Both the position numbers and the translations under genes were made by a program. From Actinomycetota bacterium (GTDB taxonomy: Bacteria > Actinomycetota > Actinomycetes > S36-B12 > UBA5976): a stretch of 64,000 bases of DNA. The stretch lies in NCBI GenBank assembly GCA_026392515.1, contig JAPLBY010000029.1, positions 106,716-170,715 of the forward strand, given 5' to 3'. This document shows positions 23,131 to 52,979 of this stretch, in pieces. The notes under the pieces are model-generated. The model ran no database searches, was not told the origin of the DNA, and saw only the letters and a list, made by a program, of their open reading frames with translations. The first letter of the stretch is position 1. Each line of letters starts with the position of its first letter.

Positions 23131-23168
23131 CTTCAAGCACCCTAACCAGGTGATTGGTCCTTAATTTA

Positions 23169-24005: not shown

Positions 24006-24024
24006 AAGACTTCGAGTCTATGGC

Positions 24025-24861: not shown

Positions 24862-24864
24862 GAA

Positions 24865-26247: not shown

Positions 26248-26259
26248 TTTGCTTCCTTG

Positions 26260-28313: not shown

Positions 28314-28332
28314 TACGTATCCAATGTTTTAG

Positions 28333-28791
28333 TTAGCGGGTTCCCCATGTATAGCTCTGCTTGCGCAGTTTCAAATACATGAATGTTTCCGTGCGGCGGA
28401 CCCCAGGAATCGCACGAATTTTACGATTGATCACTTCAAGAAGTGCCTCGTCGTCTTCACAAACAACTTCGAGGATTATGTCGAAACTGCCTGCTGTCAG
28501 GATGATGTAGCTGATCTCATCCATAAGTGAAAGCACATCTGCGACGGCTTCCATGTCTCCATCAACTTCTATGCCGATCATCGCTTCGCGATTAAAACCA
28601 ACTTGAAGTGGATCCGTAACGGCAACGATTTGCATAACTCCGGTTTCCAGGAGTTTGCTCACCCGTTGGCGAACTGCAGCTTCCGACAATCCAACGGCCT
28701 TACCGATAGTTGCGTAAGGGCGTCGACCGTCTTGCTGAAGTTGCTCAATGATGGCTTTGGAGACATCGTCGAGCACAGCAACTTTAGACAT
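28333..28791 (-). CDS. Lrp/AsnC family transcriptional regulator
   Basis: About 152 residues: an N-terminal winged helix (DDVSKAIIEQLQQDGRRPYATIGKAVGLSEAAVRQRVSKLLETGVMQIVAVTDP) and a C-terminal RAM ligand domain (AMIGIEVDGDMEAVADVLSLMDEISYIILTAGSFDIILEVVCED). The start at ATG 28791 gives the usual length; a GTG at 28815 would add eight residues. Lrp/AsnC proteins sense amino acids or amines as oligomers. Divergent from the semialdehyde dehydrogenase and upstream of the aminotransferase operon, it most likely controls both. Confidence 0.9.
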   Translation of the reverse strand: MSKVAVLDDVSKAIIEQLQQDGRRPYATIGKAVGLSEAAVRQRVSKLLETGVMQIVAVTDPLQVGFNREAMIGIEVDGDMEAVADVLSLMDEISYIILTAGSFDIILEVVCEDDEALLEVINRKIRAIPGVRRTETFMYLKLRKQSYTWGTR

Positions 28792-28831
28792 GTGTCTAGT
28801 TTCAAGGGTTTTCACAGAAAAAACAAGTGAT

Positions 28832-28868
28832 TTCGTAGTATTTTTTCAAAATTGATACGAATTTCGTA
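28832..28868. promoter_or_regulatory. Candidate Lrp operator: inverted repeat plus half-site
   Basis: TACGAA-T-TTCGTA (28856-28868) is a perfect inverted repeat in AT-rich DNA. A second TTCGTA half-site lies at 28832-28837, 31 bp away, close to three helical turns. Lrp-type proteins bind phased degenerate palindromes like this, and the position next to the regulator gene suggests autoregulation. Confidence 0.55.
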
Positions 28869-28898
28869 GATTTTTACAGATTTTGGTCAAGATATCGC

Positions 28899-28920
28899 AA
28901 AAAAGCCCCTGACAACAGGG
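28899..28920 (-). terminator. Leftward terminator-like hairpin in the divergent region
   Basis: On the minus strand CCCTG-TTGT-CAGGG is followed by GC and six T. It would stop leftward transcription before the Lrp operator, either insulating the regulator from antisense transcripts of the dehydrogenase promoter or acting as an attenuator. The stem is only five base pairs. Confidence 0.4.
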
Positions 28921-28999
28921 TCATTCCTTGGGTATTGTTTAATGAATTATCCAGGCCCAACGGTCCTTAAAACCGACTGTCTTTTAAAAGGAAGATCCC

Positions 29000-30340
29000 A
29001 TGAGTCACTATCAAGTTCTTAACCCAGCAACCGGTGTAGTTGAACAAGAATTCGCCACCGCCACAGATGCCCAGTGCAACGAAGCAATTGCTGCTGCAGA
29101 CAACGCGCACAAGGCTTGGAGCAAAGTTTCAATCGCGGACCGCGCCGCAATTGTGCATCGCATTGGACAGCTACACATTGATCGTCAAGATGAACTTGCT
29201 GCGATTATCAATCGCGAAATGGGTAAGCCATTGGCCGATGCTGCTGGCGAAGTTGAATTCTCTGGTTTCATTTATCAGTACTACGCAGACAACGCAGCAA
29301 CTTTGCTTGCGGATACTCCGATCGAACTTTCCGGTGGTGAAGGAACCGCAGTAATGCGCAAGTCTTCAGTTGGTGCGCTGCTTGGAATCATGCCGTGGAA
29401 CTTCCCGGCTTACCAGGTTGCTCGATTTGCTGGACCAAACCTTGTGGCAGGCAACACCGTTATTTTGAAGCATGCTCCACAATGTCCGGAATCAGCATTA
29501 GCAATTGTGAAGATTTTTGCAGATGCAGGTGTTCCTGAAGGTGTTTATGTAAACCTGTTTGCATCCAATGAACAAATTGCAGACATGATTCCTCACCCAG
29601 CAATTCGTGGTGTATCGCTAACTGGTTCAGAACGTGCAGGCGCAGCAGTTGCTGAAATCGCAGGCCGTCACCTAAAGAAGTGCGTACTTGAACTTGGTGG
29701 CTCGGATGCATTCATCCTGCTTAGCACCAAGGACATGGACGCAGTTATCGAATCTGCAGTTATGGCTCGTATCGATAACACTGGCCAGGCATGTAACGCT
29801 GCAAAGCGCATGGTTGTCGTTGATGGGCTTTATGACGAATTCGTTGACAAGTTCACTTCAGCGATGATGGCTGCTGAAATTTCTAGCCCACTTAGCTCAG
29901 TACGAGCTGCCGAAATCCTTGAAGAGCAAGTTAACCGCGCAGTGAAGCAGGGCGCAAAGCTGGCAAGCGCAGGCCCACGTAACGGTGCATTCTTCCCAGC
30001 AGGCGTACTAACTGAAGTTTCTACGGATAACGAAATTTTCCGGGAAGAACTATTTGGTCCAGTTGCCCAGATTCACCGTGCAAAGGATGAAGCTGATGCA
30101 ATTCGCATTGCTAACGATTCTCAATTCGGATTGGGTTCATACCTATTCACAACAGATGACAAGCAAGCCCTTCGAGTTGCAGATGCACTTGATACCGGAA
30201 TGGTTTACGTCAATGGTGTGGGTATGGATGCGCCAGAACTTCCATTTGGTGGAACTAAGCGATCTGGCTTTGGCCGCGAACTTGGTCCTTTAGGTATTGA
30301 AGAATTCCTAAACAAGAAGCTCATCCGCATCAACGGCTAA
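29000..30340 (+). CDS. NAD(P)-dependent succinate-semialdehyde dehydrogenase-like ALDH
   Basis: A 446-residue aldehyde dehydrogenase of the short GabD/Sad type. GIMPWNFPAYQVARFAGPNLVAGN (about 129-152) is the cofactor site, LELGGSDAF holds the general base Glu231, and NTGQACNAAKR holds the nucleophile Cys265. FREELFGPVA and ELPFGGTKRSGFGREL are conserved. In this context it probably oxidises succinate semialdehyde from the GABA/putrescine route to succinate. AAAAGGAAG precedes the ATG, and a terminator follows. Confidence 0.87.
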   Translation: MSHYQVLNPATGVVEQEFATATDAQCNEAIAAADNAHKAWSKVSIADRAAIVHRIGQLHIDRQDELAAIINREMGKPLADAAGEVEFSGFIYQYYADNAATLLADTPIELSGGEGTAVMRKSSVGALLGIMPWNFPAYQVARFAGPNLVAGNTVILKHAPQCPESALAIVKIFADAGVPEGVYVNLFASNEQIADMIPHPAIRGVSLTGSERAGAAVAEIAGRHLKKCVLELGGSDAFILLSTKDMDAVIESAVMARIDNTGQACNAAKRMVVVDGLYDEFVDKFTSAMMAAEISSPLSSVRAAEILEEQVNRAVKQGAKLASAGPRNGAFFPAGVLTEVSTDNEIFREELFGPVAQIHRAKDEADAIRIANDSQFGLGSYLFTTDDKQALRVADALDTGMVYVNGVGMDAPELPFGGTKRSGFGRELGPLGIEEFLNKKLIRING

Positions 30341-30350
30341 TCAATTACCT

Positions 30351-30386
30351 AAAAATAGGCATCTCTTAATTGAGGTGCCTATTTTT
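30351..30386 (+). terminator. Rho-independent terminator after the semialdehyde dehydrogenase
   Basis: AAAAATAGGCATCTC pairs with GAGGTGCCTATTTTT (one G-T pair) around a TTAATT loop. A and T tracts flank the stem. Confidence 0.92.
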
Positions 30387-30435
30387 ATGCCCAAAATTTA
30401 TTACCTTGATGCCTGCATCTATTCAATTCTCTGCT

Positions 30436-30441
30436 TACAAT
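30436..30441 (+). promoter_or_regulatory. Candidate -10 box for the structured leader
   Basis: TACAAT is a good -10 match. The -35 is weak: CTGCAT at 30413-30418 gives a 17-base spacer. Transcription would start near 30448 and give a leader of about 190 bases before the FAD oxidase start. Confidence 0.45.
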
Positions 30442-30447
30442 GAAAGA

Positions 30448-30629
30448 GCAAGGGGATCACCTGTAGAGGTGGCCGATTGGCACTAGGAACATAAGGCCTA
30501 GAGCGCATATAGAAGGGGACTGGTGGGATCCGGATTCGCAAAAATGCGAATACCGACAGAAAACAATGCTGGCGATTTTTGCCAGACACATCTGATCACC
30601 AGTGAGCCCCCTCTCACCCAATCGTTTGG
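30448..30629 (+). ncRNA. Candidate structured regulatory leader RNA (possible riboswitch)
   Basis: This non-coding leader has nested, perfect pairings. A 5' hairpin is CACCT-GTAG-AGGTG (30458-30471). The outer helix is CGATTGG (30474-30480) with CCAATCG (30618-30624). Inside it are CTAGG/CCTAG (30483-30501) and a long helix GGGG-ACTGGTG (30515-30525) with CACCAGT-(GAG)-CCCC (30597-30610). That helix closes a multi-way junction holding CGG-ATTCGCA-AAAA-TGCGAAT-A-CCG (30531-30555) and CTGGC/GCCAG (30569-30585), joined by the purine-rich ACAGAAAACAATG. The outer 3' strand can alternatively pair as CCAA-TCGT-TTGG, masking a GGA that lies 8-10 bases before the next start codon. I could not match a known riboswitch class. 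Confidence 0.6.
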
Positions 30630-30638
30630 ACTTTTGCA

Positions 30639-32060
30639 ATGGTTTTTTCACACACACCTTCACCACATGTTTTGCCATCCCTGGCTGATGTCTGGGAAGG
30701 CTCTTATTGGCTCGATGATGAAGTTGAGCCAGAACATGATTCATCTCGAGTCGTTGGCAATTTAACTGCTGACCTATTAATTGTTGGCGGCGGATTCACA
30801 GGACTGTGGGCTGCGATCGAAGCCAAAGAACACAATCCAAACTTGGATGTGGTTTTAGTTGAAGGTAACGCAGTAGCACGTGGAGCATCTGGCCAAAACG
30901 GTGGCTTCGTTGCCGCGTCCCTGACACACGGTTTTTCCAATGGGCTAGATCGTTGGCCAGATGACATTGCCAAGCTGACAAAACTTGGCCAACAAAACTT
31001 AAATGAAATGGAACAGTTTGTAATCGATCGCAAAATCGATTGTGACTGGATGCGCGTTGGCGAAATGGATGTTGCCACCGAGGAATACCAAGTGACTGAA
31101 CTTCAAGAGTTTGTTGAAGTAGCAAAACCTTATGGCGAGGAATTGGTTTGGTTAGATCAAGCCGAAACTCGACGTCGTCTAAATTCACCTACCTACCTTG
31201 GCGCATTGTTTGATCCAGATAGTGTCGCAATTTGTGACCCAGCTCGCTTGGCTTGGGGACTTCGCGATGTGGCACTTTCACTCGGAGTTCGAATCTATGA
31301 ACACAGCAAAGTAGTTGACTTAGATGAGCGCGGCGATCGGGTTACTGCAAAAACTGAATTCGGTAGCGTTACGGCTCCAAAGGTTTTGCTTGCAACTAAT
31401 GCCTTCCCGCCGCTACTTCGTCGCCTTAAGTATTTGATCGTTCCGGTTTATGACTCAGTTCTAGTTACCGAACCATTAAGCGAGCAACAACGTCGCGACA
31501 TAGGTTGGGCAGGCAATGAAGGCGTCAGCGATACCGGCAATCAGTTCCATTACTACCGCCCAACTGCAGATGGTCGAATTCTTTGGGGTGGATACGACGC
31601 GACCTATCATTTCCGCAGTGGCTTTGGGGTTCAGCATGAGCACTCAACTAAGTCTTGGCCAAAATTAGCCGATCACTTCTTCTCAACGTTCCCGCAGCTT
31701 GAAGGTTTGCGTTTTGAGTATGCCTGGAGCGGAGCAATCGACACTTGCACCCGCTTTAGTGCGTTCTGGGGAACTGCAATGGATGACAAAGTTGTTTATG
31801 TCGCTGGCTACACCGGACTTGGTGTTGGAGCCTCACGGTTCGGCGCCCAAGTATCAATCGACAAGTTGCTAGATCGCGATACAGATCGCCGCAATCTTGA
31901 AATGGTTAACACTTTGCCAATTCCATTCCCACCTGAACCATTTAAGTCAGCTGGAATTAACTTCACCCGCTGGTCACTTGATAAAGCAGATCGCAATCAA
32001 GGTAAACGAAACATTTGGTTACGCACGCTCGATCGATTTGGTATGGGATTCGACAGTTAA
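30639..32060 (+). CDS. FAD-dependent amine oxidoreductase (second PuuB/DAO-like)
   Basis: A 473-residue relative of the 24865 gene, though clearly diverged. LTADLLIVGGGFTGLWAAIEA (about 43-63) is the ADP-binding fold and ARGASGQNGGFVAASLTHG the flavin-contacting motif. The C-terminal YAWSGAIDTCTRFSAFWG and YVAGYTGLGVGASRFGAQVSIDKLL complete the family pattern. It has no good SD and starts right after the structured leader, whose alternative hairpin could hide the ribosome entry region. It is co-transcribed with an HDAC-like deacetylase 29 bases downstream, suggesting amine release then oxidation. Confidence 0.82.
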   Translation: MVFSHTPSPHVLPSLADVWEGSYWLDDEVEPEHDSSRVVGNLTADLLIVGGGFTGLWAAIEAKEHNPNLDVVLVEGNAVARGASGQNGGFVAASLTHGFSNGLDRWPDDIAKLTKLGQQNLNEMEQFVIDRKIDCDWMRVGEMDVATEEYQVTELQEFVEVAKPYGEELVWLDQAETRRRLNSPTYLGALFDPDSVAICDPARLAWGLRDVALSLGVRIYEHSKVVDLDERGDRVTAKTEFGSVTAPKVLLATNAFPPLLRRLKYLIVPVYDSVLVTEPLSEQQRRDIGWAGNEGVSDTGNQFHYYRPTADGRILWGGYDATYHFRSGFGVQHEHSTKSWPKLADHFFSTFPQLEGLRFEYAWSGAIDTCTRFSAFWGTAMDDKVVYVAGYTGLGVGASRFGAQVSIDKLLDRDTDRRNLEMVNTLPIPFPPEPFKSAGINFTRWSLDKADRNQGKRNIWLRTLDRFGMGFDS

Positions 32061-32089
32061 TCTCTGGCTCAAGTTGTAAAGTCAAAGAC

Positions 32090-33190
32090 ATGGCGACTGG
32101 ATTTGTTTGGGAAGAGCTTTATGGCTGGCACAGCACCGGCTCTAACACTGGACAAATTCCTTCAAGTTCCATAGTCCAGCCATATCAACACTTTGAAAGT
32201 CCGGAAACTAAAGTTCGATTCGCCTCATTAGTTGAAGTCTCAGGACTGGCCAAAGACTTGGTCCGCATTCCTGCAATTCCGGCCACAGAAGAAGACCTGC
32301 TGCGGGTTCATACCCAAGAGCATCTGGATCGAATCAAGCGAGAAAGTCTAAATCCAAAAGGTGGTGACGCCGGAGATGGCGATTCGCCATTTGGATCGGG
32401 TGGATTCGAAATTGCAGCTCTTGCCGCAGGTGGAGCAATAGCTGCGCTGCGGGCTGTGGTTTCTGGCGAAGTTAACAATGCCTATGCGTTAGTGCGCCCA
32501 CCTGGACATCATGCAATTGCGTCAATGGGAATGGGTTACTGCATGTTTGCAAACGCAGCAATTGCAATTGAGAATGTCCGCGCAACTATGGGCGTACAAC
32601 GAGTTGCGATTGTGGATTGGGATGTGCACCACGGAAATGGAACGCAGGACATCTATTTCTCAGACCCAGATGTCTTGTGCATTTCGATCCATCAGGACAA
32701 TTTGTATCCAGCAAACAGCGGATTAGTTGATGAGATCGGTGACGGATTGGCTGCCGGTTCAGTAATCAATATTCCGTTACCTGCTGGCTCTGGAATCGGT
32801 GCCTACAGCTCGGCATTTGACAGAGTAGTTTTGCCAGCGATTCGTCGATTTAATCCTGATGTAATCGTGATCACTTCTGGTTTTGATTCGAGTGCATTCG
32901 ATCCACTTGCCCAGATGCTGCTAACTGCTGCAGGCTATAGCGAGCTAACCAAGAAGATACTTCAACTTGCAGATGAAGTTTGCTCCGGTCGAGTCATGAT
33001 GACACATGAAGGTGGATACTCGCCGGTTTATGTACCTTATTGTGGGCTTGCAGTTCTTGAGGAGATGTCTGGTATCAAAACTGGCATGAATGATCCGTAC
33101 GGACACGCCTTTGAGAATTTGCCAGATCAGAAACTTTCGGCTGCTCAAGCGGATCGCATATCTCAAGTAGTAGCGACCCACGCTTTGTGA
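32090..33190 (+). CDS. Histone-deacetylase-like (class II) amidohydrolase, copy 1
   Basis: A zinc amidohydrolase of 366 residues related to acetylpolyamine amidohydrolases and class II HDACs. YALVRPPGHH lies at 132-141. The zinc ligands fall in DWDVHHGNG (Asp178, His180) and SGFDSSAFDPL (Asp266), and MTHEGGYSPVYVPYCG carries the catalytic Tyr region. The N-terminal YGWHSTG is shared with copy 2. I start at ATG 32090, matching copy 2 exactly in length. The substrate is probably an N-acylated amine. It is convergent with the LuxR-type gene, whose stop lies four bases away. Confidence 0.88.
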   Translation: MATGFVWEELYGWHSTGSNTGQIPSSSIVQPYQHFESPETKVRFASLVEVSGLAKDLVRIPAIPATEEDLLRVHTQEHLDRIKRESLNPKGGDAGDGDSPFGSGGFEIAALAAGGAIAALRAVVSGEVNNAYALVRPPGHHAIASMGMGYCMFANAAIAIENVRATMGVQRVAIVDWDVHHGNGTQDIYFSDPDVLCISIHQDNLYPANSGLVDEIGDGLAAGSVINIPLPAGSGIGAYSSAFDRVVLPAIRRFNPDVIVITSGFDSSAFDPLAQMLLTAAGYSELTKKILQLADEVCSGRVMMTHEGGYSPVYVPYCGLAVLEEMSGIKTGMNDPYGHAFENLPDQKLSAAQADRISQVVATHAL

Positions 33191-33194
33191 TTAT

Positions 33195-34205
33195 TTAGTC
33201 GAATCTCTTTACTTGGCCAAGAATCAATCCCTCAGTGATTGCTCTGGCAGCGGCTGCAGCGCGATTTGGCGCACCTAACTTATCGAGAATGTGTTCAATG
33301 TGAGATCCAACGGTTCGCGAACTGATTTGCAATGCGGCGCCAATTTCCAAGTTAGATAAACCATTTGCCGCCAGAGTTAAGACTTCGAGTTCACGATGTG
33401 TAAGAGGGCCAACATCTGCGACATCTAGCGAGATAACTGCGGACATTGGTTGGTTATCACCGCGGCATGGCATTACCCGAATTCTAAACATGTCGTCATT
33501 GAGATCTTGTGGCCAGATAAATGAGCTCCAGGAATTCATGCTGGCATTTTGATGTGCGTAGGAAATCAAATCGCTACCCGGTTTAAACAAGTCATGATCA
33601 GGCAATCCAGGAAGCGCAATCGGATTGCCATCAGCGCTGATACCAACGGCGGATTGTCCAGAACCAATCAACATAGAAAGCCATTTTCCTGATTGAGTTT
33701 GATCCGCCATGTTGGCTAGCACGCTACAAAGACTGCTGATTGCATCCCGAGCTATATCTGAAGGGTGCTCTGGTGATGTTGTTGAGAGATTGATGACTCC
33801 AGTAACTCGACCATCTGTGGTTCGAAGGCACATAGTTAAGCCCTCGCTATATCCAGCAGGAACTAGTACGTCTCCTACTGCCCAGTTATCAAATGGATCA
33901 CCAGGTAGATCCTTCATTCGAACTGGTCTTCCGGTGATTGGAAGGGCAAGCGCCTTCATTAGTTCAGTGAACCTTTGACTATGTAAATGGCTAAGTACGT
34001 CAGAGTCATAACCAACGCTTGCCAGCGGAGTAACTTCTCCAGTAATTGGATGCAAGGTGTTTATCTCCGCGGCATCAAATGGAATGAGTTTGCGAAGTTC
34101 TTCAAAAACTGCACTTGCCCTAGCTGCTTGCGGAGCCTGCTCCGATGCAACTGCTGCCACGCGTCCTACGACGTCCATGGCCTGAGTAAGCGAAGGGCTT
34201 GACAT
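33195..34205 (-). CDS. LuxR-type regulator with N-terminal sensor domain
   Basis: A 336-residue protein. The C-terminal 60 residues are a LuxR/GerE helix-turn-helix: GPLTHRELEVLTLAANGLSNLEIGAALQISSRTVGSHIEHILDKLGAPNRAAAAARAITEGL. The N-terminal two thirds look like a GAF-type sensor (AEINTLHPITGEVTPLASVGYDSD, then VLVPAGYSEGLTMCLRTTDGRVTGVINLS). It is divergent from the ABC importer operon and convergent with the deacetylase, so it is the obvious local regulator of amide uptake. The inducer is unknown. Confidence 0.85.
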   Translation of the reverse strand: MSSPSLTQAMDVVGRVAAVASEQAPQAARASAVFEELRKLIPFDAAEINTLHPITGEVTPLASVGYDSDVLSHLHSQRFTELMKALALPITGRPVRMKDLPGDPFDNWAVGDVLVPAGYSEGLTMCLRTTDGRVTGVINLSTTSPEHPSDIARDAISSLCSVLANMADQTQSGKWLSMLIGSGQSAVGISADGNPIALPGLPDHDLFKPGSDLISYAHQNASMNSWSSFIWPQDLNDDMFRIRVMPCRGDNQPMSAVISLDVADVGPLTHRELEVLTLAANGLSNLEIGAALQISSRTVGSHIEHILDKLGAPNRAAAAARAITEGLILGQVKRFD

Positions 34206-34462: not shown

Positions 34463-35770
34463 GTGATTCGATCCAAGACATCAATAAGGGTTGCCAGTTT
34501 GGCAGCCGCGGCAGCATTACTTGCTGCTTGTGGTGGCGGTTCTGGGGATGCCTCAGCAACCGGTGCTGCAACAGCCGCTGCACCAACAGGTGAACCGATT
34601 GTTATCGGTGCACCATTTGCACAGTCCGGTCCGGCAGGTATTGCGGATCATAAAGATTGCTGGAACGGAACAGATCTTGCAATCGAAGAAATCAATAATG
34701 CTGGTGGTGTTAATGGTCGTCCACTTGAATTAAGTGTTACCGACATCGACATTCTTACTCCAGAAGGCATTACAGCAGCTTTCCAGAAGCTAGCTGCTGA
34801 AAAGGTTTCTGCAATTCAATCTGCGTTCGTCATTATTCCGCCTCCAGCACTTGATGCTGCAGCGGCATACGGCGCACCTTACATGAGTGGCGACACCAAC
34901 ATTGATGCTCAGAAGCTGGCAACAGCTGATACTGCAAAGTACGGAAACTACTTCACCGATCCTGCCGAGACATACTACGGCTCCGGTTTTGTAACTTTCC
35001 TTACCCAGCTTTCTGATAGCGGATCTTGGACACCAAGTAACAACAAGGTCGACATTATTCGTGGCGACACTGCTTACAACAAGAACATCGCTGACGCTAC
35101 AGAAGCGGCAATTGCGGCTTCAGGTGGCAAGTGGGAACTTGGTCAGATCATTGACATCACAGCAGGCACAAAAGACTGGGGTCCAGTAATTGCTAAGTTG
35201 CAGGCAAACCCTGCCGGCGCAATCATGGTTGATCACTGGATTGGTGCAGAACTTGCTTCCTTCTCACAGCAGTTTGCTGGAGATCCAGTAGCAGATTCAC
35301 TTGTCTACCTACAGTACGGACCGTCACAGCCAGAGTTCTTGCAGATCGCAGGAGCCGCAGCTGAAGGTTTCGTATGGGGAACTGTGATTGGTGTTGGAAA
35401 TACTTCCGATCAGGACAAGGCATTCCGCGCTGCGTACCAAGCTAAGTTCGGCGTAGACGACGTATCTATGGGTATGGTCTACACCGGATGGTGCTACGAC
35501 ACAGTTAACGTATTGGCAAATGCTTGGAAGAATGTTGACCCAGCAGACTTTGCTGCAGTTAACGAGTACATCAAGGCAAATCCATACGATGGCGTAACTG
35601 GCCACTTGGACTTCTCCAAGCAGGCAGTGCTTATCTACCCAACTGTAGAAACCGATCCTGCAAAGGGTGTTACACATTACTTCTACCAAGTTCAGGGCGG
35701 TCGTCACACGACAATTGCTCCTGACGGCGATGCTGAAGCAGCATTCGTTAAGCCAGCTTGGATGCAGTAA
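34463..35770 (+). CDS. ABC transporter substrate-binding lipoprotein (branched-chain/amide type)
   Basis: A 435-residue exported lipoprotein. The signal peptide ends in lipobox LAAC with Cys23, followed by a Gly/Ala linker. GEPIVIGAPFAQSGPAGIADHKDCWNGTDLAIEEINNAGGVNGRPLEL is the start of a type I periplasmic-binding fold, the class that binds branched-chain amino acids, urea or short amides. It starts at GTG 34463 with GGAGG six bases upstream. As the first gene of an operon ending in amidohydrolases, it probably captures an N-substituted amide (inference). Confidence 0.9.
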   Translation: MIRSKTSIRVASLAAAAALLAACGGGSGDASATGAATAAAPTGEPIVIGAPFAQSGPAGIADHKDCWNGTDLAIEEINNAGGVNGRPLELSVTDIDILTPEGITAAFQKLAAEKVSAIQSAFVIIPPPALDAAAAYGAPYMSGDTNIDAQKLATADTAKYGNYFTDPAETYYGSGFVTFLTQLSDSGSWTPSNNKVDIIRGDTAYNKNIADATEAAIAASGGKWELGQIIDITAGTKDWGPVIAKLQANPAGAIMVDHWIGAELASFSQQFAGDPVADSLVYLQYGPSQPEFLQIAGAAAEGFVWGTVIGVGNTSDQDKAFRAAYQAKFGVDDVSMGMVYTGWCYDTVNVLANAWKNVDPADFAAVNEYIKANPYDGVTGHLDFSKQAVLIYPTVETDPAKGVTHYFYQVQGGRHTTIAPDGDAEAAFVKPAWMQ

Positions 35771-35774
35771 TCAA

Positions 35775-36506
35775 ATGCAAGTACTAGCTTGTTCCAACAT
35801 TGCACTTGAACTAGGTGGTCGTCAGATCCTTAGTGACGTGAACTTAAGTGTTGGTCAAGCAGAAGTAGTTGGTCTTGCCGGTCCCAATGGGGCCGGCAAG
35901 ACCAGCCTTTTTGAAGTTCTCTCTGGTCGAAATTTGAATCACCAGGGAAAAGTTGAACTCAATGGTGTGGACATAACTTCACTTTCCATGCAAGAAAGAG
36001 TCAAACTCGGACTGGTGCGAACTTTTCAACGCCCAGTTGTTCCAGCCACACTTACTGTTGGCGAAACCCTGAAAGCTGCTCGCAAGGCTTTTGATCCAAA
36101 GCCAAGTCGACTAAGAATGGAATGGGTTGCTGAATTTGTTCACTTAAATGCACCTATGAATACTCCAACAGGGGGATTAGAAACCCTCGAACGACGCAAG
36201 CTAATGCTTGCCTGTTTGCTTGCCCGAGAACCAAAAATTGTTTTGCTAGATGAGCCGGCATCAGGATTAACCGGATCTGAGATTGATGAAATTGATTTGA
36301 TAGTCAGGAAACTTGCGCAAGAGTATGGAATATCTGTGCTCTTGATTGAACATCGACTGGAGTTACTTGCAATGGTTGCTTCTCGAGTACTCGTTTTGGA
36401 TGTTGGCGAAATCATTGCCGAAGGTCCACCAGATTCGGTCTTTAAGCAACCAGCTGTGCGGGCTGCGTACTTCGATGTCCCAATAGAAAGCGCAGTGGGT
36501 GCATAG
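35775..36506 (+). CDS. ABC transporter ATPase, LivG-like
   Basis: A 243-residue ATPase. The Walker A GPNGAGKTSLFEVLSG lies at about residues 37-52. TPTGGLETLERRKLMLACLLA stands in the position of the signature motif, but the usual LSGGQ is replaced by the degenerate PTGGLE. Walker B is PKIVLLDEPASGL, and IEHRLELLAMVASRVLVLDVGEIIAEG holds the switch His. The start ATG 35775 follows the preceding stop by four bases. It pairs with the LivF-like ATPase. A non-canonical signature is worth noting because it could make the two ATP sites unequal. Confidence 0.88.
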   Translation: MQVLACSNIALELGGRQILSDVNLSVGQAEVVGLAGPNGAGKTSLFEVLSGRNLNHQGKVELNGVDITSLSMQERVKLGLVRTFQRPVVPATLTVGETLKAARKAFDPKPSRLRMEWVAEFVHLNAPMNTPTGGLETLERRKLMLACLLAREPKIVLLDEPASGLTGSEIDEIDLIVRKLAQEYGISVLLIEHRLELLAMVASRVLVLDVGEIIAEGPPDSVFKQPAVRAAYFDVPIESAVGA

Positions 36507-36508: not shown

Positions 36509-37225
36509 ATGAGTCTTCTTGAAATGCGGGAAGTTTCCTCCGGGTATGGAACCATGCGGGTAATCCATGGCCTCAACTTCACAATTGATCCTGGCGAGAG
36601 AATTGGACTTGTTGGCCTAAATGGTCATGGTAAAACCACGTTGATCAGCACAATTGTCGGAATGACTGGCTGGCAAGATGGCTCGATTGAGTTCATGGGG
36701 CAACAAATTGGTGGTCGCCGTTCGCATGGTGTTGGACGAAATACTCCAAAGATTGTTCGCTCTGGAATTGCCATTGCACCACAGGGTGATGCGATTTTCC
36801 CTGGACTTACCGTTGAAGAAAATTTGGCCAGTGGTGCCTACACCGAAGGTGCATGGAAAACTCGCAAACAGAGGCGAGATGCAATTTTAGAAGTCTTTCC
36901 ACCACTACGCACGAGATTGAAGCAATCAGCGGGCACACTTTCCGGTGGTGAACGCCGAATGGTTTCAGTGGGACGTGCGCTTATGGCAGATGCAAAACTA
37001 TATCTTGTTGATGAGCCATCTCTCGGTCTTGCGCCAAAAATTTCGATTGGTTTAGTAGATGCACTTTGCAAAATTGATTTAGGCGATGGAGCGATGTTGA
37101 TTGCAGAGCAAAACTTACCTTTGTTATCTGGTAGATGTGATCGCATTTTAGGAATGCACGCCGGTGAACTTAAGGAAGACGTTGGCGAAGCATTTGGCGA
37201 TATTCCTCCGGCAGCGGAGATGTAA
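36509..37225 (+). CDS. ABC transporter ATPase, LivF-like
   Basis: A 238-residue ATPase. VGLNGHGKTTLISTIVGMTGW is Walker A (about residues 33-53), APQGDAIFPGLTVEENL the Q-loop region typical of LivF, LSGGERRMVSVGRALM the signature, and LYLVDEPSLGLAPK Walker B. It is tightly packed in the operon, with its stop overlapping the next ATG (TAATG). Confidence 0.9.
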   Translation: MSLLEMREVSSGYGTMRVIHGLNFTIDPGERIGLVGLNGHGKTTLISTIVGMTGWQDGSIEFMGQQIGGRRSHGVGRNTPKIVRSGIAIAPQGDAIFPGLTVEENLASGAYTEGAWKTRKQRRDAILEVFPPLRTRLKQSAGTLSGGERRMVSVGRALMADAKLYLVDEPSLGLAPKISIGLVDALCKIDLGDGAMLIAEQNLPLLSGRCDRILGMHAGELKEDVGEAFGDIPPAAEM

Positions 37226-38124
37226 TGATTGAGTTAATCGCAAGCGGTTTAGTTCTAGCCTCTATGTACGGTCTAGTAGCTGTCGGAATTTCACTTACCT
37301 GGTCCAGTGTTGGAATGTTAAATCTGGCACAGGGATTTGTTTTTACCTTTGGTGGCTATGTGGCATTTTTGTTTGCGCAATACATGGCAAAGAATTTCAG
37401 CATTCGTGACGGCGTACTGCTCTCGCTAGGCGTGGTATTGCTTGGCATGATTGGCTCAGCGATTGCCGGACTGATAGTTGGGGGACTCGCATTTTTACCA
37501 CTTCACGATCGAGTTAATTTCCCAGTTCGTGGATTGATTGCAACTTTAGCTATCAGCATTATGGGCACTCAAATCTTCATGCTGATCTTTGGTCCACAAA
37601 GCAAACCACTTCCGCAAATTTTTGGAATTAAGCGACTTAAGATTGGCGAGTTCAGCATTGCCTACGGCCAAGTTGGAACAATAGTGGTTGCAACAGTCGT
37701 ACTGCTTATTGTGACTCTTTGGATGAGACGAAGTCGTCGCGGACTTCAAATGCGCGCCATGATGATGAACCCACTCGGCGCAAATATGGTTGGTGTTTCA
37801 GTTCGAACTACTGGAATGATCGCGCTTGCAATTAGTGGCGCACTTGCGGGCCTAGCTTCGGTCTTGCTGGGACAAATCTTCTTTGTTAGTCCGACATCAG
37901 GCGTGCAACCACTCATTGTTGGCTTAATCATTTCCCTTGCAGGTGGACTTGGATCAATGCCAGGAACAGTTTTAGCTGCAGTGCTACTCGGATTCGCAGA
38001 AGCCGTAACTGCCCGCTACACCGAGCAATCTTTCGTTCCTTTTGTTCAGTTCGCTCTCGTGATTGCGATTTTGACTTTCAAACCACGAGGACTTGGTGGG
38101 GTATTGGAGGATGTTCGTGAGTAA
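37225..38124 (+). CDS. ABC transporter permease, LivH-like
   Basis: A 299-residue membrane protein of the branched-chain permease family. GLVLASMYGLVAVGISLTWSSVGMLNLAQGFVFTFGGY is the family N-terminal signature, and GALAGLASVLLGQ followed by GGLGSMPGTVLAAVLLGFAEAV is the coupling-loop region. About eight helices are expected. It overlaps the next permease by eight bases. Confidence 0.9.
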   Translation: MIELIASGLVLASMYGLVAVGISLTWSSVGMLNLAQGFVFTFGGYVAFLFAQYMAKNFSIRDGVLLSLGVVLLGMIGSAIAGLIVGGLAFLPLHDRVNFPVRGLIATLAISIMGTQIFMLIFGPQSKPLPQIFGIKRLKIGEFSIAYGQVGTIVVATVVLLIVTLWMRRSRRGLQMRAMMMNPLGANMVGVSVRTTGMIALAISGALAGLASVLLGQIFFVSPTSGVQPLIVGLIISLAGGLGSMPGTVLAAVLLGFAEAVTARYTEQSFVPFVQFALVIAILTFKPRGLGGVLEDVRE

Positions 38125-39640
38125 ATACGAAGTCGGACGTCGACGCCTTATTCCTCGTTGGCCAGTAAGAACCAGTTCACTTTTTCACCGGGTCAGAGTG
38201 CCCGGAACCAAGCGCTCACTGTTGCGATTTGAAGGAAGATACAACCCAAAGACATTGCAGCGGGAGTTAATTCTTAGAGATAAGAAACCGCTGTTTTGGA
38301 TGGTAGGTCTATTTGCATTGGCTGCAATTCCAATTGCCGTTGGACAGCAATTAGTTTTTTCAATTTTTGGCAGCATTTGCTTTTTTGCCGCAATTAACGT
38401 TTTGTGGACATTGATTATTGGCACCGCAGGTCTGCAATCTTATGCAAGTTTGGCGACAGTTGGTGTGGGTGCGTATGCAGCTACATACCTAAGCATCACT
38501 TATGGAATTCCTTGGCCAATAATGCTTATCGCTGGAACATTGTTTGGCGCCCTGATGGGATTCATCATTAGCGTCCCGGCCCGAAGACTTGATGGACTCT
38601 ATTACGCACTGTTGACAATTGGAATTTCCGAATTTTTGCGAAGTTACATTACGCAATCAGAATCTCTCGGCGGTCAATTCAATGGAGCACTTTTTGGTGC
38701 CGATCGCATTGTGTCGGAAGAGGCAATGCAAACTTCTTCAGGGCAGACAATCTCTTACTTAGTTTCATTTTTTGTGCTCTTGATTTCGTTAGCTATCTTC
38801 CGATTGGTTAGTGGCGGAAGAATTGGAATCTTGCTTCGTACTGCACAGTCTTCTAAAGAAGATGAATCGTTTGCTGCCGCAATTGGCATTGATTTTCAAC
38901 GAGCTCGACTCTTTGTTTTCTTGATTTCATCTGCCGCACTTGGTTTTGTTGGAGCTTTTTATGCAACAAACCAAGGTGGCGCCTCACTAAGTTTGTTTAG
39001 CTTGGACCAGATGTTGTTGCTTTTGGCGATGATCGTGATCGGCGGACTAGGTAAGGCTGAAGGCGCAGTAGTTGGCACAGTCATTGTGGTCTTCCTAAAT
39101 CAATGGTTCACTTCATGGGGTCCATGGCGAATCGTTCTTGTTGGATTCCTAATGTTGGCCTCTGTGCTTTACACCAGAAATGGTCTGTTTGGCCTTCGTC
39201 AACAGTTAATTGAAATTAGAGAAAGACGAAAAGCACTGTCGCGAGCGACTCGCACCACTCGATACGGCGCTTTCTTGCCAGAGCAGGGACCGGAAATTTC
39301 TGACAAGGGCGTTATTGCTGAGCGAGAGTTTGAGCGGGCAATTAGAGATCAATTACGCGATTGGATTACGCCAGAGATCATCGAAGAGCATCGATTAAGT
39401 CCACTGGGTCAGCATTCCGATCACTTAGAGCGGATCCTTAATTACTTTAGAAAGCAACCAATTAGTAATAAATATGTCGTTTACTGTGAATCAGCATTCC
39501 AGGCTTACCGTGTTGTAGCTTTAAGCGGCATCCCCGGTGTACCGCCACGATTAGTCGACGACAAAACCTACTCAAATCTTGACGAGGCATACCATGCGGT
39601 ATTTCTTCGTCGCATCAACGACCTAAAGTCACAGCACTAG
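38117..39640 (+). CDS. ABC permease (LivM-like) fused to a dimethylformamidase small-subunit-like domain
   Basis: 507 residues from GTG 38117, which has GGAGG (38106-38110) six bases upstream. Residues 1-57 are a basic cytosolic extension. Residues 58-360 form a LivM-type permease (AINVLWTLIIGTAGLQSYASLATVGVGAYAATYL, then GGLGKAEGAVVGTVIVV). After the last helix comes a soluble tail; about residues 395-507 include TPEIIEEH, HSDHLERILNYFRKQP (from His433), KYVVYCESAFQAYRVVALS and, at the end, EAYHAVFLRRINDL. As I remember it, the small subunit of N,N-dimethylformamidase (DmfA1) contains a very similar NYFRMQP, KYYIYSE, DAYRIA, HAVFLRRIEDV series. The large-subunit gene follows 14 bases later and no separate small-subunit gene exists, so the fusion would tether the enzyme to the importer. 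Confidence 0.8.
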   Translation: MSKYEVGRRRLIPRWPVRTSSLFHRVRVPGTKRSLLRFEGRYNPKTLQRELILRDKKPLFWMVGLFALAAIPIAVGQQLVFSIFGSICFFAAINVLWTLIIGTAGLQSYASLATVGVGAYAATYLSITYGIPWPIMLIAGTLFGALMGFIISVPARRLDGLYYALLTIGISEFLRSYITQSESLGGQFNGALFGADRIVSEEAMQTSSGQTISYLVSFFVLLISLAIFRLVSGGRIGILLRTAQSSKEDESFAAAIGIDFQRARLFVFLISSAALGFVGAFYATNQGGASLSLFSLDQMLLLLAMIVIGGLGKAEGAVVGTVIVVFLNQWFTSWGPWRIVLVGFLMLASVLYTRNGLFGLRQQLIEIRERRKALSRATRTTRYGAFLPEQGPEISDKGVIAEREFERAIRDQLRDWITPEIIEEHRLSPLGQHSDHLERILNYFRKQPISNKYVVYCESAFQAYRVVALSGIPGVPPRLVDDKTYSNLDEAYHAVFLRRINDLKSQH

Positions 39641-39653
39641 AAGGAGAAATCAA

Positions 39654-41954
39654 ATGGCACAAGTATCAGTAACTGGCTACACAGATAAACCAAGTGTGGT
39701 TGAGGGCGAAACCATTTCCTTCTATGTCACGGCTGACAACGCAACTGAGGCGCAAGTAGATATCGTCCGATTGATTCATGGCGATGAGGACCCTAAAGGT
39801 CCAGGCTTTCAAGAAGAAGTTGTTCAGTCAGATTTTTCCGGGAAAAAGCCAGTAAAAAAACAGTTTGTTGATCTAGGAAACGCAGTTCGCGTTAAGGATC
39901 CGTCAGGAAAACTGGACCTAACTGATTCCTTCTCAATGTCATCGTATGTGTTTGCCACTACGCCCGAAAAGGGACGCCAAGTACTTTTAGGCAAGTTCTC
40001 GTTGCATGAAACAGCGGGATACGCAATGGGTCTTGATCCAGAAGGAAGACTGGCTTTTTGGATTGCAAATGGCAACGATACTGACGAAATTGTTTCACAA
40101 GTTCCATTAGCGCATCACACTTGGTACTTTGTCGCTGTTTCATTTGATGCAAAGTCTGGAAATACAATCTTGCATCAAGAGGCAATTGTTAATCCTTACA
40201 ACGGCCGCTTGGGCTTGGTAGCTCCGTTTGATCACACTTGTTCAGTTGAACAGAATCTTCGCCTAAAGATCAAGAGCGCTACGACGGATTTCATGTGGGC
40301 GGCAGCCTCAAATTCGGCTACTGTGCGAGGACCATATAAGGACCTTTTGTTCAATGGAAAGATTGACCGATCCAATGTTTGGAATCGCGCCCTGAGTCTT
40401 GCTGAGATTAAGTCGCAATGCTGTGCTGATCCCGTCTCAGAGGGGTTAATCGCAGCTTGGGACACAACCGAAGGCTATGGCGAAAACGGAATCGGTGACA
40501 CTGTCATTGACGTGTCTTCAAACCAGCTACACGGAGAAGGTGTCCAACGTCCAATTCGAGCTATGACTGGATACAACTGGTCTGGCAAACACGATGACTG
40601 GCGCGTAGCACCTAAAGAATATGGTGGCATTGCATTCCATGATGATTCAGTAATTGATTGCGAATGGGACGAGACATTTAGTTGGACTGTGCCAGCAGGT
40701 CTAAAGAGTGCCGCTTATGCCGCGCGGATTCGAATTGGCGACGTTGAAGATCACATTCCATTCTTTGTTCGAGCCGCAAAGCCAAAGGCGAGAATTTTGT
40801 ACTTGTATCCAACGAGCTCTTATCTTGCGTATGCAAACGAAATGATTGTGCACCATGTTCCAGTTGCTCAGGCGATTGGATCTCATCCGGCAGTGCTGAC
40901 TAAAACCGAAGCCGACTATTTCCAGGATCCCAAGTACGGGCGTTCAACATATGATCACTACGCCGATGGTGAAGGCGTGTGTTACACATCATGGCTACGA
41001 CCAATTCTGAACATGCGTCCAAAATGGCGCTCGTCAGCAATTGGTACAACGTGGCAATTCCCGCGTGACTTATCGGCCACTGCCTGGATGGAGCATGAAG
41101 GTTATGACTTTGAAATCGCCACAGACCATGACTTAATGCGCGAAGGTCTTGATTGGCTAAAGAACTATTCCGTAATCATTACTGGATCACATCCGGAGTA
41201 CTGGAATGAATTCGGGCTAAATGTATTAGAGGAGTACATCTCAACTGGTGGTCGCTTGATGTACATGGGTGGCAATGGCTTCTACTGGGTCATCTCTTAC
41301 CGTGATGGCGAACCAGAAATCATGGAAGTGCGAAAAGGTGAAGCTGGAATGCGCGCCTGGCAAGCCGAACCTGGTGAGTACTACCACGCAACTTCTGCTG
41401 AACGCGGTGGCATCTGGCGCAATCGCGGTCGAGCCCCACAGAAGTTAACCGGCGTCGGGTTTACAACGCAAGGATTTGATGCCTGCCATCCTTACTACCG
41501 AATGCCAGATAGCTATCACAAATCAGTATCTTGGATTTTCGACGGAGTTGAAGGTGAAAAATTTGGTGATCATGGTCTAGCTCTTGGTGGCGCCGCTGGC
41601 CTAGAAACTGAACGTTATGACTTGCTATTGGGAACCCCGCCGCACACTAAGTTGCTGGGCTCCTCAACTAACTGGTCTGACAACTATCCAGGCGTCCACG
41701 AAGACATCATGTTCCATCATCCGGGATTGCTTGGTACTCAAAACCCTGCAGTAAGAGCAGATATGACTTACTTCACTGCAGGAAACAACGGCGCTGTATT
41801 TTCAACTGGCTCAATTGCGTGGACTAGTGCATTACCGAGCTTTGGATATCAAAATGATGTCGCCCGAATCACCAAGAATATTCTTGATGCATTTTCCAAG
41901 CCGGGTGAACTTCCAGGCGGGGCATGGACTGAAGACGAAAAGTCGTGGCGTTAG
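39654..41954 (+). CDS. N,N-dimethylformamidase large (beta) subunit family protein
   Basis: A 766-residue protein. The N-terminal 60 residues are a beta domain, residues about 65-290 a LamG/concanavalin-like region (LDLTDSFSMSSYVFAT, WYFVAVSFDAKSGN, IDRSNVWNRALSLAEI). From about 365 the catalytic domain typical of dimethylformamidase follows: ARILYLYPTSSYLAYAN, TYDHYADGEGVCYTS, VIITGSHPEYWNE. From memory, the characterised enzyme binds iron through two Tyr and a Glu, with a His nearby; the matching residues here are Tyr393, Tyr433, Glu515 and His513. It hydrolyses N-substituted formamides to amine plus formate; the natural substrate is unknown. AAGGAG precedes the ATG. Confidence 0.87.
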   Translation: MAQVSVTGYTDKPSVVEGETISFYVTADNATEAQVDIVRLIHGDEDPKGPGFQEEVVQSDFSGKKPVKKQFVDLGNAVRVKDPSGKLDLTDSFSMSSYVFATTPEKGRQVLLGKFSLHETAGYAMGLDPEGRLAFWIANGNDTDEIVSQVPLAHHTWYFVAVSFDAKSGNTILHQEAIVNPYNGRLGLVAPFDHTCSVEQNLRLKIKSATTDFMWAAASNSATVRGPYKDLLFNGKIDRSNVWNRALSLAEIKSQCCADPVSEGLIAAWDTTEGYGENGIGDTVIDVSSNQLHGEGVQRPIRAMTGYNWSGKHDDWRVAPKEYGGIAFHDDSVIDCEWDETFSWTVPAGLKSAAYAARIRIGDVEDHIPFFVRAAKPKARILYLYPTSSYLAYANEMIVHHVPVAQAIGSHPAVLTKTEADYFQDPKYGRSTYDHYADGEGVCYTSWLRPILNMRPKWRSSAIGTTWQFPRDLSATAWMEHEGYDFEIATDHDLMREGLDWLKNYSVIITGSHPEYWNEFGLNVLEEYISTGGRLMYMGGNGFYWVISYRDGEPEIMEVRKGEAGMRAWQAEPGEYYHATSAERGGIWRNRGRAPQKLTGVGFTTQGFDACHPYYRMPDSYHKSVSWIFDGVEGEKFGDHGLALGGAAGLETERYDLLLGTPPHTKLLGSSTNWSDNYPGVHEDIMFHHPGLLGTQNPAVRADMTYFTAGNNGAVFSTGSIAWTSALPSFGYQNDVARITKNILDAFSKPGELPGGAWTEDEKSWR

Positions 41955-41980: not shown

Positions 41981-43081
41981 ATGACAACTGGTTATGTATG
42001 GGAAGAGCTTTACGGCTGGCACGATACGGGTACGGCGGCTGGGTTACTAACTCCTGGTCTTGATGTCCAGCCTTACCAACACTTCGAGAGTGCTGAAACG
42101 AAGGTTCGCTTGGCATCCTTACTTGAAGTTTCTGGCCTAACCAAGAGTCTGAATCGGATTTCAGCTGTTCCAGCGACCGAAGAACAAGTCTTGCGAGTTC
42201 ATACCAAGGATTATTTAGAGCGCATTAAAGCCGAAAGCGCTCAGCCTAAAGGCGGAGACTGTGGCGATGGCACCTCACCATTTGGACATGGATCTTTTGA
42301 AATTGCGTTACTTGCTGCAGGTGGTGCGATTGAAGCAACTCGCGCAGTAGTAAACGGCACGGTTCGTAATGCCTACGCTCTTATCCGTCCGCCAGGTCAT
42401 CACTCCCGACCAACTACGGGAATGGGATTTTGCATTTTTGCAAATGCTGCAATTGCAATTAAGTTTGCGCAAGCCGAACTTGGCGTCAAGCGAGTTGCAA
42501 CTGTTGACTGGGATGTTCACCACGGCAATGGCACTCAAGAAATTTTCTACAGCGATCCAAACGTGCTAACTATTTCGTTGCATCAAGATGGATTGTTCCC
42601 GGCGAACAGTGGAAACATCGCAGATAGTGGTGAAGGAGACGGTGACGGCTTTGCAATCAATGTGCCACTTCAGCCAGGTTCTGGAAACGGAGCTTATCTC
42701 GAGGCAATTCAACGAGTTGTAGTACCAGCGTTGCGCAAATTTAAGCCAGAGTTGATCGTTGTTCCTTCGGGCTTTGACGCCAGCGCTGCTGATCCCTTAG
42801 GCCGCATGCAAGTAACCCCAACTGGTTACCGAGCGATGACGCAAGAGTTAATGGCAATTGCAGACGAAGTGTGTGACGGCAAAATCATCATGACTCACGA
42901 AGGTGGCTATTCACCGTTTTACGTTCCGTACTGTGGCTTAGCGGTACTCGAGACACTCTCTGGCGTAAAAACGGGGATCGAAGACTCAATTACTCCGACC
43001 TGGGATGCTTTGCCTGGCCAAGAGTGCCAGCCGGAACAGTCTGCCCGAATCGGCCAAGTAGTCAGCGCCTTTAATCTCTAA
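41981..43081 (+). CDS. Histone-deacetylase-like (class II) amidohydrolase, copy 2
   Basis: Also 366 residues, aligned with copy 1 without shifts at the motifs: zinc ligands Asp178 and His180 in DWDVHHGNG and Asp266 in SGFDASAADPL, RPPGHH at 136-141, and MTHEGGYSPFYVPYCG. YGWHDTG near the N-terminus is conserved in class II relatives. It ends the importer operon, 26 bases after the dimethylformamidase-like gene, with AAGGAG before the ATG. The two copies flank the importer, one in each transcript, suggesting related but different acyl-amine substrates. Confidence 0.88.
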   Translation: MTTGYVWEELYGWHDTGTAAGLLTPGLDVQPYQHFESAETKVRLASLLEVSGLTKSLNRISAVPATEEQVLRVHTKDYLERIKAESAQPKGGDCGDGTSPFGHGSFEIALLAAGGAIEATRAVVNGTVRNAYALIRPPGHHSRPTTGMGFCIFANAAIAIKFAQAELGVKRVATVDWDVHHGNGTQEIFYSDPNVLTISLHQDGLFPANSGNIADSGEGDGDGFAINVPLQPGSGNGAYLEAIQRVVVPALRKFKPELIVVPSGFDASAADPLGRMQVTPTGYRAMTQELMAIADEVCDGKIIMTHEGGYSPFYVPYCGLAVLETLSGVKTGIEDSITPTWDALPGQECQPEQSARIGQVVSAFNL

Positions 43082-52824: not shown

Positions 52825-52979
52825 CCTTAAATCGTTCTTTTTCAACCAAGTCAGCAGTGACAACAATTGATGCTGCTTTTGGCCTCTGGCCGTTGACTCG
52901 ATCCTGGCGCACCTTCCCCGGTGCCAGGCTCTCCAACGGCCAGGGACTAAAGGCAGTAACAAGATCTGATGTGGCGTAA
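52821..52979 (+). CDS. Small ORF of 52 codons between mraZ and rsmH
   Basis: It begins with an ATG overlapping the mraZ stop (ATGA) and ends with TAA overlapping the rsmH ATG (TAATG), so it would be translationally coupled at both ends. The peptide starts MTLNRSFSTKSAVTTIDAAF and is basic, with no membrane helix or motif that I recognise. A strong stem-loop lies within it. It may be a true small protein, or it may only keep ribosomes moving through the structured spacer. Confidence 0.55.
   Translation: MTLNRSFSTKSAVTTIDAAFGLWPLTRSWRTFPGARLSNGQGLKAVTRSDVA
52886..52943 (+). promoter_or_regulatory. Long stem-loop in the mraZ-rsmH spacer
   Basis: CTGGCCGTTG (52886-52895) and CAACGGCCAG (52934-52943) are perfect 10-bp arms. 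Nested inside, CCTGG-CG-CACC pairs with GGTG-CCAGG around TTCCCC. There is no T run, so control of rsmH translation or RNA processing is more likely than termination. Confidence 0.7.

What the first reader, a model, noticed from the sequence alone, without database searches (positions are those of the whole stretch)
38117..39640. An ABC importer permease that appears to carry the dimethylformamidase small subunit as its own tail
Seen: the LivM-like permease continues, without a stop, into a roughly 110-residue soluble tail, and the dimethylformamidase-like large-subunit gene follows 14 bases later with no separate small-subunit gene. Family knowledge (from memory): the small subunit DmfA1 of N,N-dimethylformamidase contains an NYFRMQP, KYYIYSE, DAYRIA, HAVFLRRIEDV series, which the tail parallels in order and spacing. 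Inference: the hydrolase is docked on the cytosolic face of its importer through this tail, so substrate is cleaved as it enters. I know of no described transporter-tethered amidohydrolase of this type.
Basis: partly seen in the sequence, partly recalled or inferred. Interest (0 to 1): 0.93.

Follow-up and report, generated by a model that had tools for sequence, protein, structure and literature searches.

The report
Importer carrying its enzyme's missing subunit
A bacterial nutrient importer carries, as its own tail, a domain that matches the small subunit of an amide-cutting enzyme whose large subunit is encoded by the very next gene, so the enzyme is likely held at the membrane and would cut its substrate as it enters the cell.

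The parts
34463..35770 (+). substrate-binding protein of the importer (Peripla_BP_6)
   Evidence: PF13458 E=3.6e-28; 3h5l_A E=4.5e-48
35667..36506 (+). LivG-type ATPase (open frame; the true start is uncertain)
   Evidence: PF00005, PF12399; best NCBIfam model LivG, below its cut-off
36509..37225 (+). LivF-type ATPase
   Evidence: PF00005 E=1.3e-28; best NCBIfam models LivF and UrtE, below cut-off
37225..38124 (+). LivH/UrtB-type permease
   Evidence: PF02653 E=4.5e-33
38117..39640 (+). LivM-type permease fused to a DMFase small-subunit tail, 507 aa
38279..39178 (+). membrane part, residues 55-354, ten predicted helices with both ends predicted cytosolic
39179..39289 (+). helix and low-confidence linker, residues 355-391; no internal ribosome-binding site here, unlike relatives outside Actinomycetota
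   Evidence: pLDDT 63-72 over residues 371-400; internal TTG387 has SD energy -1.7
39290..39637 (+). small-subunit tail, residues 392-507
39641..39653 (+). 13-base gap with the ribosome-binding site of the large subunit
   Evidence: sequence; SD energy -8.8
39654..41954 (+). DMFase-type large subunit, 766 aa, with the Fe ligands Y393, Y433, E515 and H513, N541, E651, F687 in place
33195..34205 (-). LuxR-type regulator related to DmfR of Paracoccus aminophilus
   Evidence: 28% identity over 326 columns, E=1e-25
41981..43081 (+). histone-deacetylase-like amidohydrolase
   Evidence: PF00850; 1zz0_A E=2e-112; also dimethoate hydrolase 9gkw and propanil hydrolase 9gku
32015..33190 (+). second histone-deacetylase-like amidohydrolase (open frame; start uncertain)
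   Evidence: translation resembles the 41981 gene by eye; no NCBIfam match; not searched against Pfam

Best explanation
The gene at 38117-39640 encodes a LivM-type ABC importer permease that ends in a domain matching the small subunit of N,N-dimethylformamidase, and this tail likely docks the large subunit encoded by the next gene, so that the importer would double as a subunit of the hydrolase and the substrate would be cut as it enters. Shown: the fusion, both homologies, the active-site residues, the operon order, its conservation and its co-occurrence with the importer. Predicted: ten membrane helices with the tail on the cytosolic side. Inferred: the tail binds the large subunit as the free small subunit does in the Paracoccus enzyme, where the large subunit alone was inactive and the active-site entrance lies between the two subunits (PMC7686228); because no other small subunit was found in this genome, the enzyme would be active only when attached to the importer. 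Inferred for relatives outside Actinomycetota: an internal ribosome-binding site in the linker makes the same gene give a free small subunit as well. The substrate is an amide of unknown identity; I do not claim that it is DMF.
For: Tail homology by sequence and fold. Large subunit with the seven checked residues. 79 of the 80 best loci fused, large subunit in 80 of 80, all four other importer genes upstream on the same strand in 63 of the 79 (the rest include short contigs), gap to the large subunit at most 120 nt in 71 of 79. Large-subunit tree: the fused type with its few unfused members separates from the rows that hold Paracoccus DmfA2 (85 against 33 of 118 rows, SH-aLRT 99; 50 against 32 after thinning to 82 rows without some long or partial ones, 100, mixture model), which fits one fusion. 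Fused tails in the six loci that also carry a free small-subunit gene are 89% identical on average (15 pairs) against 61% for the free copies, 82% for the permease core and 82% for the large subunit, so the tail is kept although a free copy exists. The five unfused members of the clade show no importer gene of this type in the DNA held; four have a luciferase-like monooxygenase nearby, as expected if tethering pays only when the substrate is imported. A DmfR-like LuxR gene flanks the operon.
Against: No protein-level test. The predicted interface could not be inspected: the joined model has pTM 0.87, but no coordinates or PAE were returned, and the large subunit alone makes up about 83% of it. 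In the Paracoccus enzyme two small subunits serve two large ones, so an enzyme dimer would have to bridge two importers or be half filled. Two distant loci (L178, L198) have a branched-chain-type importer upstream of a free, unfused small subunit, so fusion is not needed for import-coupled use in general. The five unfused clade members show that the tether can be lost. A free subunit in relatives means that part of their enzyme need not be tethered.
Confidence: 0.75

Rival explanations
1. The fusion is a fixed-ratio or folding device: the tail is needed only so that enzyme and importer are made and regulated together, and the position at the membrane gives no delivery of substrate.
For: The operon already couples the genes; relatives outside Actinomycetota also seem to make a free small subunit; no path between permease and active site was tested.
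Against: Where a free small-subunit gene exists the fused tail is still the better conserved copy (89% against 61%); the unfused members of the clade lack the importer.
Confidence: 0.3
2. The tail is released by proteolysis in the linker, so that the enzyme is an ordinary soluble DMFase and the fusion is only a polyprotein.
For: The linker is predicted with low confidence (pLDDT 63-72 at residues 371-400).
Against: The linker length is constant (15-16 positions between the two profiles in 82 of 82 fused genes measured), and relatives seem to meet the need for a free subunit by an internal start instead.
Confidence: 0.1
3. The tail is a sensor that regulates the importer (trans-inhibition) and no longer serves the enzyme.
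For: C-terminal regulatory domains on ABC importers are known (recalled: MetN, ModC).
Against: It keeps the fold and the most conserved motifs of free small subunits, the large subunit is present in 80 of 80 loci, and no other small subunit was found in the genome.
Confidence: 0.07
4. Assembly or frame artefact: a lost stop codon in one MAG.
For: The window comes from a draft of 40 contigs.
Against: 238 proteins at E<=0.001 of fused length; 79 of 80 loci; few amino acid changes at saturated synonymous change in the tail (dN 0.046, dS 2.2 against L039).
Confidence: 0.005

Closest known systems
N,N-dimethylformamidase of Paracoccus (DmfA1/DmfA2, PDB 6lvb; PMC7686228)
   Same: both subunits by sequence and fold, the 2-Tyr-1-Glu iron site residues, and a DmfR-like LuxR regulator
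   Different: there the small subunit is a separate gene (dmfA1 directly before dmfA2 on pAMI2 of P. aminophilus) and no importer is annotated in the stretch that I fetched; here the small subunit is the tail of the permease
LivHMGF / UrtABCDE branched-chain amino acid and urea importers
   Same: one binding protein, two permeases, two ATPases in one operon; PF02653, PF00005, PF13458
   Different: no Liv or Urt model listed by NCBIfam reaches its cut-off; the LivM-type subunit has an enzyme-subunit tail
N-acetyl-(R)-beta-phenylalanine acylase (PDB 8i5a, 8huy)
   Same: homologous large subunit (E about 1e-108)
   Different: known to me only from the molecule names; I did not read its paper or check for a small subunit
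Nested small subunits from internal in-frame starts: Cas11b inside cas8b (PMC11899642, abstract and outline read); Rpn (PMC10327210, seen in a search listing)
   Same: one gene, full-length protein plus a C-terminal small product from an internal start; applies to relatives outside Actinomycetota
   Different: here the full-length product is a membrane transporter and the small product an enzyme subunit; the window's own lineage lacks the internal start
Transporters with a fused enzyme domain (recalled: peptidase-containing ABC exporters)
   Same: an enzyme held on a transporter by covalent linkage
   Different: here the fused part is a non-catalytic subunit that would recruit the catalytic chain, and transport is inward

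Membership tests
N,N-dimethylformamidase (two-subunit, Fe) | large subunit homologous over its whole length | tested here: met
   6lvb_A E=2.7e-193, residues 2-752 of 766
N,N-dimethylformamidase (two-subunit, Fe) | iron ligands Y399, Y440, E521 and catalytic H519, N547, E657 | tested here: met
   all present in the window protein; residues named from PMC7686228, main text read whole
N,N-dimethylformamidase (two-subunit, Fe) | small-subunit fold present | tested here: met
N,N-dimethylformamidase (two-subunit, Fe) | small subunit as a separate chain | tested here: not met
   tail of the permease; no other copy found in the 94%-complete genome
N,N-dimethylformamidase (two-subunit, Fe) | hydrolysis of DMF | not testable with these tools
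   pocket residue F693 is F in the window but Y in 53 of 69 fused-type rows
LivHMGF/Urt-type ABC importer | binding protein, two PF02653 permeases, two ATPases in one operon | tested here: met
   order SBP-LivG-LivF-LivH-LivM
LivHMGF/Urt-type ABC importer | score above a curated Liv or Urt model | tested here: not met
   all listed ones below cut-off
Gene with a nested start for a free small subunit | Shine-Dalgarno and start codon at the domain border | tested here: not met
   window and 15 other actinobacterial rows: 0 of 16; relatives outside Actinomycetota without a free gene in the operon: 60 of 60
Gene with a nested start for a free small subunit | free protein is made | not testable with these tools
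   needs a blot or ribosome profiling

The most novel reading that the evidence does not exclude
A transport-and-hydrolysis machine in which the importer is itself an obligatory subunit of the enzyme. In relatives outside Actinomycetota one gene is programmed to make two forms of that subunit: a membrane-tethered one and, from a ribosome-binding site hidden in the linker peptide K-G-G-E-x-M, a free one. When a paralogous gene takes over the free form, the hidden site is erased by synonymous changes while the tether is kept; in the window's lineage only the tethered form remains, so the enzyme would exist only at the importer's mouth.
Probability: 0.65. Interest if true: 0.88.

Novelty: new variant of a known kind. 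Interest (0 to 1): 0.82.

Why it matters
Whether bacterial importers hand substrate directly to the first catabolic enzyme is usually argued from weak, transient contacts (my general knowledge). Here the contact would be covalent and built into the enzyme's own quaternary structure, at the subunit that lines the active-site entrance, so delivery can be tested by cutting one linker. The family offers natural controls: fused only, fused plus nested free subunit, fused plus separate free gene, and unfused without importer. It also shows a likely route of gene fusion, in which the small subunit's ribosome-binding site became a linker and went on working.

Tried and rejected
Pfam on the tail alone gave no family; the newer Pfam accession PF26354 is attached to fused and free homologues in the protein database, but its name was not available to me. 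No paper on the fusion was found by: 'dimethylformamidase' (13 papers; the main text of one read whole, passages of two), 'dimethylformamidase'+'permease' (1 paper, passages read, they concern other permeases), 'ABC transporter permease fused'/'amidase'/'tethered' (listing), five transporter-metabolon terms together (0 papers), 'DMFA2' or 'ABC transporter permease' (8 of 1,560 listed) and channelling terms (listing). The library is open-access only, so this does not show that nobody has noted it. The AF2 read-through model was meant to show the interface, but no coordinates or PAE are returned, so it is only weak support. An internal start in the window was looked for and rejected (TTG387, energy -1.7; TTA in L039). 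A long frame that seemed to fuse the tail to another protein in L166 is most likely an upstream extension across a luciferase-like gene on the other strand. A possible fusion of small and large subunit in L163/L200 rests on an 18-bit match and was not pursued. That the substrate is an acetylated polyamine was considered from the neighbouring genes and left open. dS values were near saturation or not computable, so no dN/dS ratio is claimed.

Full report
THE GENE. The frame 38117-39640 encodes 507 residues. Residues 97-349 are a branched-chain-type ABC permease domain (PF02653). The rest of the importer lies directly upstream on the same strand: binding protein, two ATPases and a LivH/UrtB-type permease. 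No Liv or Urt model listed by NCBIfam reaches its cut-off, so the substrate cannot be read off the family.

THE LARGE SUBUNIT. The next gene starts after 13 bases with its own ribosome-binding site and matches 6lvb_A at E=2.7e-193. The residues checked from the Paracoccus paper are all present: Y399, Y440, E521, H519, N547, E657 and F693 (window Y393, Y433, E515, H513, N541, E651, F687). [quoted passage not shown] In the window's genome no second small subunit was found (best other match 25 residues at E=0.03) and one large subunit. The assembly is 94% complete.

HOW WIDESPREAD. A protein search with the tail finds 238 proteins of fused length at E<=0.001 (120 listed) and 33 short ones, some of them fragments. 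A scan of one genome per species (84,980) found 151 loci, of which the best 80 by similarity to the window's tail were kept: by record title 14 Actinomycetota, 46 Alpha-, 15 Beta- and 3 Gammaproteobacteria (one of them a MAG titled Klebsiella, perhaps misnamed), 1 Desulfobacula and 1 without rank. The fusion is present in 79 of 80 and the large subunit in 80 of 80; all four other importer genes lie upstream on the same strand in 63 of the 79 (several contigs are too short to show them); the large subunit's domain starts within 120 nt in 71 of 79. In draws over whole classes it is rare: the small-subunit family occurs in 36 of 385 genomes of the class of the Rhodobacter genome; loci of 30 of these 36 genomes were returned and annotated, and two genomes are fused, one being the genome on which the draw was centred. 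In the class of the Methylobacillus genome it occurs in 9 of 369; only the centre was seen fused, one locus being cut by a contig end. Of 195 relatives of the window's genome 31 have some match to the large subunit, among them 4 of the 23 of the same genus, the window's own included. Fused genes also lie on plasmids of Rhizobium, Agrobacterium, Ensifer and Aminobacter.

ONE CLADE. In a tree of 118 large subunits, the fused type with a few unfused members (85 rows) separates from Paracoccus DmfA2 and other free-subunit enzymes (33 rows) at SH-aLRT 99. The mixture model on 82 rows, after leaving out some long-branch, partial or near-identical rows and thinning the fused ones, gives the same split at 100. 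The tool warns of long branches, so details inside are unsure. The extra free subunits in fused loci form one group of 8 nested among fused tails (SH-aLRT 99, 104 rows, few columns): they seem to come from a fused tail.

WHEN IS THE TAIL FREE? Five members of the fused-type clade are unfused: L093, L166, L194, L195, L196. None shows an importer gene of this type in the DNA held (L093). Four of five have a luciferase-like monooxygenase nearby, L194 also a cytochrome P450; L093 has a beta-lactamase-fold hydrolase. In these the amide would be made or released inside the cell rather than imported; that is inference. Against a strict rule, two distant loci (L178, L198) have a branched-chain-type importer upstream of a free small subunit, and in Methylobacterium sp. 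DM1 a LivM-like gene (97 bits) lies downstream of the free-subunit enzyme (L125).

THE TAIL IS KEPT EVEN WHEN A FREE COPY EXISTS. In six loci with both directly in line (L079, L084, L095, L102, L112, L117) the fused tails are 89.0% identical on average over 15 pairs, the free copies 61.3%, the permease core 81.6% and the large subunit 81.5%.

A HIDDEN START IN RELATIVES. At the linker/tail border relatives outside Actinomycetota mostly read E-K-G-G-E-(V/A/I/P)-(M/V/L)-P-E-E or E-K-G-G-E-M-L-P-E-E. The codons form a Shine-Dalgarno sequence (typically AAR GGR GGY GAR) followed at once or after one codon by ATG, GTG or TTG, within a few residues of where free small subunits begin in alignment A1 (the Paracoccus subunit is some ten residues longer). 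I collected 116 fused genes with a tail score of at least 100, 85 after removing identical tails, and sorted them by hand from titles and neighbours: 16 actinobacterial, 9 with a free small-subunit gene in the same operon, 60 without. With a start codon required and a duplex energy to the anti-SD of at most -7.1 kcal/mol, the site is present in 60 of 60, 0 of 9 and 0 of 16. That cut-off was set after seeing the values (several of the nine reach -6.9 to -7.0); at -9 it is 54 of 60, 0 of 9, 0 of 16, and at -10.5 51 of 60, 0, 0. L106 has a free small subunit in a separate, oppositely oriented pair and was counted among the 60; it keeps the site. The site beats every in-frame start inside the permease core in 57 of 60 genes (4 of 9, 0 of 16 in the other groups); of 1581 such background starts 6 reach -9. 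The first glycine codon is never GGC in the 60 (GGA 33, GGG 21, GGT 6) although GGC makes up 59.5% of the other glycine codons of these genes (1e-26 if rows were independent, which they are not), and it is GGC in 9 of 9 with a free gene. In other Gly-Gly pairs of the 60 genes the first codon is GGC in 159 of 205. A scan of codon bias along the 60 genes without prior choice of site ranks four overlapping windows at the junction first of 105. The nine genes with a free copy are related, so they stand for one or two losses, not nine. At protein level, of 120 listed fused hits 24 have the GGE motif with Met or Val, 94 do not by the pattern used and 2 were not parsed; 84 of the 94 are of the R/K-Y/H-x-x-(F/Y)-L type seen in the actinobacterial loci, 2 read KGGD-V-M, and 8 of other types (such as P0088, P0097, P0112) also lack it, for which I have neither DNA nor lineage. 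So the hidden start is not shown to be universal outside Actinomycetota. The window has TTG387 with energy -1.7 and no motif, while its real starts have -9.3 and -8.8.

REGULATION AND SUBSTRATE. A LuxR-type gene related to DmfR (28%, E=1e-25) flanks the operon; DmfR activates dmfA1-dmfA2 in the presence of DMF (PMC4543880, passages). Downstream lies an HDAC-like amidohydrolase whose solved relatives include dimethoate and propanil hydrolases; upstream are an aldehyde dehydrogenase, two DAO-type FAD oxidoreductases and a class III aminotransferase. An amide that gives an amine fits; nothing shows that it is DMF.

VERDICT. The new part, a nested ribosome-binding site in the linker of relatives, is strongly supported by sequence statistics and untested at the bench.

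Noticed in passing
L107:10403-12730 and 13235-15571; L110:10342-12708 and 13186-15507; L123:9579-11921 and 12001-14322; L109:10233-12929 and 12926-15193: In the four of four fused-permease operons that I found with two large-subunit genes on one strand, one copy has lost active-site residues (for example Y399F, H519R, E657A in L107 and L110; E521A, E657A in L123) and the other keeps them, which suggests active/inactive pairs of large subunits.
   Followed up: partly
L166, L194, L195, L196: Unfused members of the same enzyme clade lie near luciferase-like monooxygenases (L194 also a P450) and show no importer of this type: possibly a pathway in which the amide arises inside the cell.
   Followed up: partly
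window 21894-32060: Genes for an acyl-CoA dehydrogenase, two EamA transporters, two DAO-type FAD oxidoreductases, a class III aminotransferase, an Lrp/AsnC regulator and an aldehyde dehydrogenase stand next to the operon: probably an amine degradation cluster.
   Followed up: partly
window 32015-33190 and 41981-43081: Two histone-deacetylase-like amidohydrolase genes frame the operon (the first judged by eye only).
   Followed up: partly
L178:3-6475, L198:6543-14823: A distant importer of the same general type precedes a free, unfused small subunit and a large subunit: a second, apparently separate association of importer and enzyme.
   Followed up: no
L125:12890-13681: A LivM-like permease gene (97 bits) lies about 600 bases downstream of the free-subunit DMFase genes on the Methylobacterium sp. 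DM1 plasmid, annotated there only as hypothetical protein.
   Followed up: no
large subunit residue F693 (window F687): The pocket phenylalanine is F in the window but Y in 53 and F in 12 of 69 fused-type rows, which may mean different substrates.
   Followed up: no
L075:10346-11590: About 1.2 kb separates the fused gene and the large subunit in Methylobacillus arboreus; content not examined.
   Followed up: no
window 52864-52969: An mraW RNA element (Rfam RF01746, 68.5 bits) is the only Rfam match at the gathering threshold in the window.
   Followed up: no
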